Source: Pseudoalteromonas sp. (GTDB taxonomy: Bacteria > Pseudomonadota > Gammaproteobacteria > Enterobacterales > Alteromonadaceae). From it: a stretch of DNA of 64,000 nt. The notes beneath the pieces are model-generated. The model had not been told where the DNA came from. It saw only the letters and a program-made list of their open reading frames with translations, and made no database searches. Both the position numbers and the translations under genes were made by a program. Location: NCBI RefSeq assembly GCF_018402495.1, contig NZ_JAGYIU010000004.1:372001-436000 (forward strand), given 5' to 3'. Numbering within the stretch: the first letter of the stretch is position 1; each line of letters begins with the position of its first letter. Positions 22,633-25,604 of the stretch are shown in pieces.

Positions 22633-23155
22633 GTAGGTTGGGTTGAGCGAAACGAAACCCAACGATTCTCCAATATCATTACCATCTTCCAAGCATGTAA
22701 ATATGCATTGTTTGTAGGTCGCTCTTTAGGGCGAAAAAAAGCGAGAAAAAGAATTTCACCACAGAGATCATAGAGGCGCTTTGCGCTACACCGAGGTAAA
22801 AGGTATTACTGTAGGCGCTAAGCTTGCTGGCGCGTTGGTTGATAGGCTGGGCTTTAGCCCAAAAGTTGTATTAGCTTGGCTGATGGTTTTTATTGCTAAC
22901 TTTCCAAGCCCAAACTCCAACCTAACGTTTAACACCCTCCCCCCCGTCATTACGCCCTGAAAATAAGCAATTGATGAGTAATGTCGCGCATGGATGCGCG
23001 ATAAGGCGAAACTAGGCCATGGATGGCCTATCTTCGCTGTTTACGTTCACATCAATTAATTATTTGAAGGATTAAGCGTAATGCTCGGGTGCGCTGGGAG
23101 AGTCCAAGGAGGGGTCAGCGGCAGCCCCTATTTGGCTGCCGTCGCCAGCGCGATG
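22633..23155. repeat. mosaic of short palindromic intergenic repeats
   Basis: Successive hairpin modules: gggttgagcgaaacgaaaccc; gtaggtcgctctttagggcg; gggctttagccc; CGCGCATggATGCGCG (22985-23000); TAGGCCATggATGGCCTA (23013-23030); CGGCAGCC-7nt-GGCTGCCG (23119-23141) nested in GCGCTGG...CCAGCGC. Confidence 0.7.
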
Positions 23156-23189: not shown

Positions 23190-23483
23190 GTGGCCAAATT
23201 AACTATGCCACTACACTGCGTTAAAGGTGCAAAATACAGCAATGGGAAGAAGAAAGGCGCTACTAATCAAAAGAATGGTAATCGTTACTTAGCGTGGGCG
23301 TTTACTGAGGCCGCTAACTTTGCCATTCGGTATAACCCAACAATTAAAAAATATTATCAACGAAAACTGGCTAAAACGAACCACGTTATCGCAATTAAAA
23401 CGGTTACGCATAAGCTCGCAAGAGCCTGTTATCACGTGCTTAAAGATAATGTCCCATTTGATGAACACAAGGCGTTTACTTAG
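23190..23483 (+). pseudogene. IS110-family transposase, C-terminal fragment
   Basis: HCVKGAKYSNGKKKGATNQKNGNRYLAWAFTEAANFAIRYNPTIKKYYQRKLAKTNHVIAIKTVTHKLARACYHVLKD. Confidence 0.85.
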
Positions 23484-23917
23484 CGACTATAAAAAATTAG
23501 GTTAACGTGTTGAGCTAATAATGGGGTTGGTAAAACCATTAGATTTGATTGAGCCTGCACGTTAACCGCTCATATTTTAAATACTGGATATGCCCAATGT
23601 TTGAGCCAAAAAGGGGTGGTTATGTTCAAACATAAACCACAGAATTGTTACAGCGCAGTGTGTAAACACAGCCAGAAACTGGACTGACATTGGTACTAAA
23701 CGATGACTGAGGCGAAAGCCAAGGGCCTTAATTAATCATCCATGATGCTTAATTAAACTGCCTAAATTCACATGGGTGACTGGTGCATATTCACACCAAT
23801 CGACGTCATTACTGGGTGCGTAGTCATATTTAAAGTGAGTTTAAAAAGTAACAACACTTGGTTTTTTGAATAAAAAGATCAAGAAAACACAGCTGCCTGC
23901 TTGACCGGAACTTTCTA
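23190..23917 (+). mobile_element. IS110-family insertion sequence remnant (transposase C-terminus plus 3' end)
   Basis: Transposase C-terminal residue pattern followed by ~435 bp non-coding up to the junction with a TonB receptor sequence; left boundary and exact right end not determinable by eye. Confidence 0.6.
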
Positions 23918-25604
23918 ATGGGTGACCCCATTTGGCTTTCTTATGGCCGTTCTGAGCCTGGCGGTACTATTAACATCATCACTAAATGAAGAACAAGGCT
24001 CTTTGAAAGTATCTGCAGGGAGCTGGCAAAGTTATCGCGCTGAAGGCGACTACACTAATGCAATTAATGATCAAGTTGCTTTTAGAATAAACGGTGCAAT
24101 TGAAGACGGTGAGGGTTTTAGAGACTACCACGAAAATAAAAAAACAGTGATCACACCTTCAGTTCTTTGGTTAATATCCGACACAACAAAATTAAATTAT
24201 GAACTAGAATATGTTGATCAGAGTGTGACGTTTGACCGTGGTATTGTTGCTCTAGATGGGAAGATAGACGCATTACCTATTGAAACATTTTTAGGTGAGC
24301 CAAGCGATGAACAAACAGAGGTTGATGCGATTTCTCATCAACTGACTTTTGAGCATCAGATAGGGCAATGGTCACTTTTAAATGGGCTTAGCTATAGCGA
24401 TTCTAAATTTATAAGCGAATCGAGTGATGCTGAACTCGCCCCTAGCAGGCAGCTTTATTTTACTGATGGCGAAACCTTAAGTCGGCAACATAACGAACGT
24501 GATTTTCAAACTAAAAACATCTCAGCGCGCACTGAGCTAAGTGGTAGCGTTACTGCTGCTGGGTTTACCCATCACTTATTAATTGGCGCAGATGCCAGCA
24601 AGTTTGATTTTGACAAACTCTGGTACAGATACCGCCCTACGCTTGAAGATACGCGCTATGCAATCAATATGTATAACCCCATGTATGGGCAAACAGCACC
24701 CGAAGGCTCACTTTTATTTGACAGCACTGAAGTACAGCACAGTTACGGGGTTTATATTCAAGATCAAATCGACATCACTGAGCAGTGGAAAGTACAAGTA
24801 GGCGGTCGTTATGATTGGTTTGATCAGCAAATAGATAATCACATTAATCAAAGTCAGTCTAAAAGCAATCAGAGTACATTTAGCCCACGAGTAGGCTTAG
24901 TGTATGCTTACTCAGACGACATACAGTATTACAGCAGTTACTCGGAAGGTTTTAGGCCAAACAGTGGTTACGATATAAACGGTGATGCATTTAAGCCAGA
25001 ATCGACAACCTCTATTGAGGCGGGTGTTAAATTTAGCACCGATACCCTAAATGGTAGCTTTACAGTATTTAGCGCCGAAAAAAGCAATATGTTGACCACA
25101 GATTTGCAAGCAGGCGTGTCGACGGCGTTAGGCGAGGTAACTAGCGAAGGCGTTGAGTTTGATTTACACGGTTATATTACAGAGCGCACGTCATTTGATT
25201 TTGCCTATACCTACACCGATGCAAAAACAGCAAACGACACGGTTAATACAGATTGGTGGGTAAAATTACCAAAAGGTAGCCCTTTACTTAATATTCCTAA
25301 ACACAGTGCAAATGCGCGTATTAAAAGAGAATTAAATGATTTAATCGATTTAAATACGACCGTTGGTATAGCTGTTCAGTATGAGGGGGAACGCTTAGGT
25401 GAAACCATAGACCCTACGTATTACTTACCTTCGTATACGCTGGTGAATTTGTTCGCAAATTACAACGTTAATGAAGATGTGATGGTACAACTGAACATTA
25501 ATAACGTGCTTGATAAAGAATATTACTCAAATTCTTACTCTGCAATTTGGACTCAACCCGGTGAGCCAGTTAATTATAAGCTGAGCTTAAAATATAGCTT
25601 TTAA
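23918..25604 (+). pseudogene. TonB-dependent siderophore receptor, 5'-truncated and frameshifted
   Basis: Starts in plug domain: YGRSEPGGTINIITK read in another frame just before the ORF, then EEQGSLKVSAGSWQSYRAEGDYTNAINDQVAFRINGA... to C-terminal YKLSLKYSF; no signal peptide or N-terminal plug. Confidence 0.8.

What the first reader, a model, noticed from the sequence alone, without database searches (positions are those of the whole stretch)
23484..23917. Candidate bridge/seek RNA segment in the 3' non-coding end of an IS110-family remnant
After the transposase stop there are ~435 bp of non-coding DNA rich in nested stems: GGTTAACGTG (23500-23509) with CACGTTAACC (23558-23567) enclosing TAATGG/CCATTA (23519-23541); CCAATGT (23594-23600) with ACATTGG (23687-23693) enclosing GGTTATGTT/AACAT-AACC-type and TGTGT-aa-ACACA hairpins. 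Knowledge: IS110-family recombinases use a non-coding RNA from an element end (upstream in the IS110 group, downstream in the IS1111 group) with internal loops specifying target and donor. Inference: these stem/internal-loop blocks may be such an RNA or its relic.
Basis: partly seen in the sequence, partly recalled or inferred. Interest (0 to 1): 0.65.

Follow-up and report, generated by a model that had tools for sequence, protein, structure and literature searches.

The report
Guide RNA gene of a jumping element

Summary
The observation and its interpretation both hold. Window 23216-23925 is the 3' end of a 1559-bp IS110-family element. The same genome holds another full-length copy with an intact transposase (L008) and one whose gene is frameshifted (L009). 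Across 30 diverse relatives they are parts of a conserved RNA: 40 pairs, 31 with compensatory changes. Models built without any Pseudoalteromonas sequence still find the window (E about 1e-13). One loop carries AAUGGGGU and AGAUUUGA, matching the two sides of the target (CAAGATTTGA^CCCCATT). A second region carries AUGGGUGA, the element's right end plus core. Over about 50 relatives these guides change together with target and donor (p<5e-5), including switches such as AGACG, ATACT, AGGCC and CACAGGG. This is a bridge/seek RNA in the IS1111-like position and order: a new member of a known kind. It differs in longer terminal extensions than canonical IS1111 and an extra target-loop-like module. 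The window copy lacks the 5' half of the element, so it is a relic; the neighbouring TonB receptor gene is itself truncated and was not its target. Unexplained: right-end fragments greatly outnumber left-end fragments in the genus.

The parts
23216..23925 (+). 3' remnant of the IS110-family element (positions 850-1559 of the 1559-bp element), identical to the complete copy L008
23190..23483 (+). ORF with the C-terminal part of the transposase (Transposase_20); element sequence only from 23216
23484..23925 (+). 3' non-coding region with the bridge/seek RNA gene and the right end
23494..23570 (+). target-binding hairpin; covariance model without Pseudoalteromonas hits at 54.3 bits, E 7e-14
23500..23509 (+). 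5' arm of stem P1
23558..23567 (+). 3' arm of stem P1
23520..23527 (+). right-target guide AATGGGGT, complementary to top strand ACCCCATT
23541..23548 (+). left-target guide AGATTTGA, same as target top strand (pairs with bottom strand)
23587..23593 (+). 5' arm of helix P0 that closes the donor multiloop
23785..23791 (+). 3' arm of helix P0
23594..23607 (+). 5' arm of helix P2
23681..23693 (+). 3' arm of helix P2
23613..23649 (+). loop II: module that looks like a second target loop (GGGGTGG-hairpin-CCACAGAATTGTT); role unknown
23672..23811 (+). donor-binding domain; model R2 hits at 68.6 bits, E 1.7e-13
23700..23709 (+). candidate right-donor guide (inconclusive)
23772..23779 (+). left-donor guide ATGGGTGA, same as element right end plus core
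23907..23917 (+). right subterminal inverted repeat GGAACTTTCTA (partner TAGAAAGCTCC at the left end of L008; absent here)
23901..23906 (+). TTGACC, -35 box of the promoter that circle closure would form (TTGACC-N17-GATAAT)
   Evidence: sequence
23918..23925 (+). right terminal extension ATGGGTGA, ending in core TGA
23926..23932 (+). right target flank CCCCATT

Best explanation
The segment is a complete copy of the bridge/seek RNA gene of an IS110-family element with IS1111-like layout. The RNA (about 330 nt) would fold into a target-binding hairpin and a donor-binding multiloop. In the target hairpin, AAUGGGGU pairs with the top strand right of the insertion point and AGAUUUGA with the bottom strand left of it. 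In the multiloop, AUGGGUGA pairs with the element's own right end. The DEDD transposase uses these pairings to recombine the circular element into CAAGAYYTGA^CCC sites, which are REP-like ends of Y1-transposase (RAYT-type) elements. Shown by sequence: structure, covariation, guide matches, ends and targets. Inferred: transcription from the circle-junction promoter, binding to the transposase and catalysis. The window copy is a relic: transposase truncated, left end and junction promoter gone.
For: Complete element and ends. Transposase passes NF033542 'IS110 family RNA-guided transposase' and two Pfam IS110 domains; PDB relatives IS621 and ISCro4. Left-target guide against target: 76/100 over 20 distinct pairs against 47.6 +/- 4.2 when permuted, maximum 65 of 20000. 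Right-target guide: 156/217 against 128.8 +/- 4.9, maximum 149. Donor guide follows the end in ATGGG, ATGAG, ATGGC and ATGGA types (all). RNA structure covariation. Independent covariance models find the window, and the target-hairpin model finds exactly the three element copies in the genome. Target sites flank Y1_Tnp genes as inverted pairs. Match with published seekRNA order and bridge RNA rules (PMC11187229; PMC11208160).
Against: No expression or RNA-binding data. The right-donor guide is only a partial match. The permutation tests do not correct for relatedness of the elements. Some distant relatives show poor guide-target match (L070, L083, L091, L116, L119).
Confidence: 0.93

Rival explanations
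1. The region makes a regulatory small RNA or structured untranslated region that controls transposase expression, not a guide.
For: ISPpu9, another element that inserts into REP sequences, has two small RNAs, Asr9 and Ssr9, reported to regulate its transposase (PMC8450116 abstract). Regulation and guiding are not exclusive.
Against: A regulator would not need loops that change with the target and donor sequence; they do.
Confidence: 0.03
2. The stems are protein-binding or terminator-like DNA structures at the element end.
For: The right junction AATGGG-TGAC-CCCATT is itself a terminator-like hairpin followed by a T-rich stretch.
Against: Compensatory changes and models span about 330 nt inside the element, not only the end; the terminator scan finds 2 against 1.1 expected.
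Confidence: 0.02
3. Chance stems in AT-rich DNA.
For: Single-sequence folding of the middle part is unremarkable (23584-23700: z = -0.87).
Against: Covariation 0 of 500 shuffles and low values for slid controls; independent models.
Confidence: 0.01

Closest known systems
seekRNAs of IS1111-type elements (ISEc11, ISKpn4, ISPa11; PMC11187229)
   Same: RNA gene downstream of a DEDD transposase of 330-350 aa; subterminal inverted repeats; segment complementary to the top target strand lies before the segment matching it; ISPa11 also targets REP sequences
   Different: Non-coding region about 440 nt against a 270-bp fragment that sufficed for ISEc11; terminal extensions of 8+8 bp (counting core TGA once, at the right) against the usual 7+3; a donor guide and a third, target-loop-like module are visible here
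Bridge RNA of IS621 (PMC11208160, PMC11208158)
   Same: Bispecific RNA with target-binding and donor-binding loops, guides overlapping at a short core
   Different: IS621 RNA lies upstream and its loops run bottom-strand guide first; here it is downstream, order reversed, and donor nucleotides sit in a multiloop, as noted for many IS1111 orthologues in that paper
REP-targeting insertion sequences such as ISPpu9 (PMC8450116) and those surveyed in PMC1525189
   Same: Insertion into repeats associated with Y1 (REP/RAYT) transposases
   Different: Here the target is CAAGAYYTGACCC in Pseudoalteromonas and relatives; sequence relation to those elements was not tested

Membership tests
IS110 family, broad sense (RNA-guided DEDD transposases) | DEDD_Tnp_IS110 and Transposase_20 domains; NF033542 above cut-off | tested here: met
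   Complete copy L008: 164.7 bits against cut-off 140, both Pfam domains. The window ORF alone is only the C-terminal part.
IS110 family, broad sense (RNA-guided DEDD transposases) | Insertion at a specific site in one orientation without target duplication | tested here: met
   Complete copies lie between ..CAAGAYYTGA and CCC.. in one orientation; uninterrupted CAAGAYYTGACCC sites exist in the same genome
IS1111 group | Long non-coding region downstream of the transposase gene | tested here: met
   442 nt downstream, 79 nt upstream
IS1111 group | Subterminal inverted repeats of 11-13 bp | tested here: met
   TAGAAAGCTCC / GGAACTTTCTA, 11 bp with one mismatch
IS1111 group | Terminal extensions of 7 (or 6) bp left and 3 bp right | tested here: not met
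   Left TAATCATA (8), right ATGGGTGA (8, core included); 16-bp spacer in the circle against 10. So not filed as a canonical IS1111 member.
IS1111 group | GL-P----S(T)G motif in the C-terminal domain | tested here: inconclusive
   Sequence reads CVKGAKYSNGKKKG; S and G are separated by one residue
IS1111 group | Top-strand-complementary guide lies 5' of the bottom-strand guide | tested here: met
   AATGGGGT 23520-23527 before AGATTTGA 23541-23548; same order in relatives
Bridge/seek RNA | Loop complementary to both target sides, co-varying with the target | tested here: met
Bridge/seek RNA | Loop complementary to left donor | tested here: met
   ATGGG, ATGAG, ATGGC and ATGGA types follow the element end
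Bridge/seek RNA | Guide complementary to right donor | tested here: inconclusive
   Consensus GATTTTC against GATAATC with one mismatch; weaker in Pseudoalteromonas; donor end varies too little to test
Bridge/seek RNA | Conserved secondary structure with compensatory changes | tested here: met
Bridge/seek RNA | RNA binds the transposase and is required for recombination | not testable with these tools
   needs expression, pull-down and transposition assays

The most novel reading that the evidence does not exclude
The RNA of this lineage carries a second copy of the target-loop module (loop II, GGGTTGG-hairpin-CCAyAGAyyTGT) that still tracks the left target weakly (43 of 80 matches against 33.5 +/- 3.3 permuted, p = 0.003 without correction for relatedness). 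It would then be a bridge RNA with three DNA-reading loops rather than two. Alternatively loop II is a structural fossil of a module duplication.
Probability: 0.12. Interest if true: 0.7.

Novelty: new member of a known kind. Interest (0 to 1): 0.45.

Why it matters
Bridge and seek RNAs are programmable recombination systems. This lineage offers natural evidence that target and donor loops are reprogrammed independently. It spans Alteromonadales to Burkholderiales, with several close relatives whose loops and landing sites changed together. It also gives an intact element with a defined RNA, ends and target that could be tested directly, and a possible third loop module to explain.

Tried and rejected
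Rfam search of the region: no family except TwoAYGGAY upstream. The receptor gene as insertion target: rejected, because the TonB homology starts only at 23941, after CCCCATTTGGCTTTC, and intact homologs have unrelated sequence there. Idea that right-end fragments with flanking TGACCC sites form integron-like gene cassettes: some genes do recur next to different TGACCC sites, but only 15 of 69 right-end fragments have such a site within 90 nt upstream (control 2%), and no precise empty site was shown; left open. First attempt at the target-loop alignment failed on coordinates; repeated. Right-donor guide: looked for by eye, not settled. Structure prediction of the transposase was not run, because family membership was already clear. 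A paper search for 'bridge recombinase' with IS110 found nothing in the held library.

Full report
What is there. Window 23216-23925 matches positions 850-1559 of a 1559-bp element with 100% identity. The full copy lies in the same genome (L008, G000 contig 4): left end TAATCATATAGAAAGCTCC, a 345-aa transposase, 442 nt of 3' non-coding DNA and right end GGAACTTTCTAATGGGTGA. A second full-length copy (L009) differs by three one-base losses, in runs of T, C and A, two of which break the transposase frame; these could be sequencing errors. The transposase is an IS110-family RNA-guided transposase by NCBIfam and Pfam, with IS621 and ISCro4 as solved relatives. The window copy keeps only the C-terminal coding part, the whole RNA gene and the right end. 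Its left part is cut at 23216, next to a sequence that looks like an IS3-type end (TGGCCAAATTAACTATGCCACTACA; recognised from memory and by likeness to an IS3-like element in L009, not tested).

Ends and target. Complete copies in the genus lie between a left flank ..CAAGA(T/C)(T/C)TGA and a right flank CCC(C/T).. in one orientation. Uninterrupted CAAGAYYTGACCC sites occur 12 times in the genome. Several of them flank Y1_Tnp genes as outward-facing inverted pairs (contig 1: 697256 and 698168 around a gene at 697371-697697; contig 5: 8078/8185 and 9091, 11037 and 11944). The target is therefore a REP-like end of RAYT-type elements. REP sequences are known targets of insertion sequences (PMC1525189), and ISPa11 is an IS1111 example (PMC11187229).

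RNA structure. Thirty diverse non-coding regions were aligned. RNAalifold gives 40 pairs, 31 with compensatory changes. The pair count shows 90% of cells paired against 70.5% shuffled, and a covariation score of 0.571 against 0.211; slid controls reach at most 0.173. There is also a long-range helix P0 (23587-23593 with 23785-23791) that closes a multiloop. Covariance models built without any Pseudoalteromonas sequence find the window at E 7e-14 (target hairpin) and 1.7e-13 (donor domain). In the whole genome the target-hairpin model finds exactly the three element copies.

Guides. In the target hairpin AATGGGGT (23520-23527) is the reverse complement of ACCCCATT right of the insertion point, and AGATTTGA (23541-23548) equals the left side. 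This is the order published for IS1111 seekRNAs. In the multiloop ATGGGTGA (23772-23779) equals the element's right end with the core TGA. In 80 related loci the loops change with the flanks. Left target: AGATT/AGATT, AGACC/AGACC, AGACT/AGACT, AGACG/AGACG, AGGCC/AGGCC, ATACT/ATACT, AGAAC/AGAAC; total 76 of 100 against 47.6 +/- 4.2 permuted. Right target: 156 of 217 against 128.8 +/- 4.9, including CACAGGG/CACAGGG in Colwellia (L058, L059) and CAAAGCC/CAATGCC (L097). Left donor: ATGAG in L054, ATGGC in L060, L061 and L066, ATGGA in L114, each matched by the loop. These permutation tests ignore relatedness, but several switches lie between close relatives (L060 and L063; L055 and L056; L052 and L074). 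The right-donor guide is not settled.

How it probably works (inferred beyond the sequence). Circle closure joins TTGACC, 17 bp and GATAAT into a promoter, as known for IS1111 elements (PMC11187229). The transcript supplies transposase and RNA, and the RNA bridges donor junction and target. On integration the promoter is split. In the window copy nothing of the left end remains, so the RNA gene is intact but probably silent. It could act in trans with the L008 transposase only if transcribed from outside.

Known or new. Layout, guide order and subterminal repeats are IS1111-like, but the terminal extensions (8 and 8 bp) are not the canonical 7 and 3, so it is filed as an IS1111-like member of the IS110 family. 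The donor guide in a multiloop agrees with what was noted for IS1111 orthologues. The extra module loop II resembles the target loop; its weak link to the left target could be relatedness alone.

The neighbouring receptor gene. Homology to intact TonB-dependent receptor genes (G101, 97% identity) starts at 23941. The intact gene has unrelated sequence where the window has CCCCATTTGGCTTTC, and the window gene also has a frame break. So the element end is fused to a gene fragment, and the receptor is not its landing site.

Side observation. Searching 109 genomes of the genus with the 3' region gives about 70 right-end fragments that stop exactly at the right end but start at many different points, while the left 500 bp gives only about eight left-end fragments. 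Many right flanks begin with CCC plus a T-rich stretch, several with short tandem duplications of TGACCCC. Truncation may follow from activity of the REP/RAYT system on chimeric ends, or from recombination by the element itself; neither was shown.

Noticed in passing
L123-L182 (Pseudoalteromonas loci), element positions 850-1559: About 70 5'-truncated right-end fragments of this element against about eight left-end fragments in 109 genomes; nearly all stop at the same base (TGA before CCC), with many different start points and clusters in one orientation 1.5-5 kb apart.
   Followed up: partly
L160, L158, L163, L152, L113, L162, L054, L199: Short tandem duplications of TGACCCC plus 10-14 nt at target-like sites, each with its own local sequence.
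   Followed up: no
L010, L128, L140, L172; L134 and L008 4046: The same small genes recur next to different TGACCC sites (target-type repeat or element right end upstream) in different genomes; L134 and L008 lie near RHS-repeat-like sequence.
   Followed up: partly
L135 728-873: Direct tandem repeat of the element's last 146 bp, joined exactly where the donor guide ATGGGTGA inside the RNA gene matches the element end: the guide's own DNA template acting as a false end, or plain 8-bp homology.
   Followed up: no
L124, L126, L127, L129, L131, L145, L149, L153 and others: A variant of the 3' region in which the donor guide ATGGGTGACTGG is replaced by ATGGCGTTCTTTATTCAAGCCACGG although the right end is still ATGGGTGA.
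   Followed up: no
window 22945-23099; L228-L231: TwoAYGGAY RNA (RF01731, 66 bits) directly upstream of the remnant; four copies in the genome; TwoAYGGAY-like sequence also sits beside element ends in L145, L123, L180.
   Followed up: partly
window 23941-25604: TonB-dependent receptor pseudogene: N-terminal part missing and a frame break near 23985; intact homologs in G101 and G106 (L217, L218).
   Followed up: partly
window 23917-23932: Right junction AATGGG-TGAC-CCCATT followed by T-rich DNA scores as a terminator-like hairpin.
   Followed up: no
L161 left flank (query 213-309): A 97-bp repeat present in great numbers across the genus ends exactly where the right-end fragment begins.
   Followed up: no
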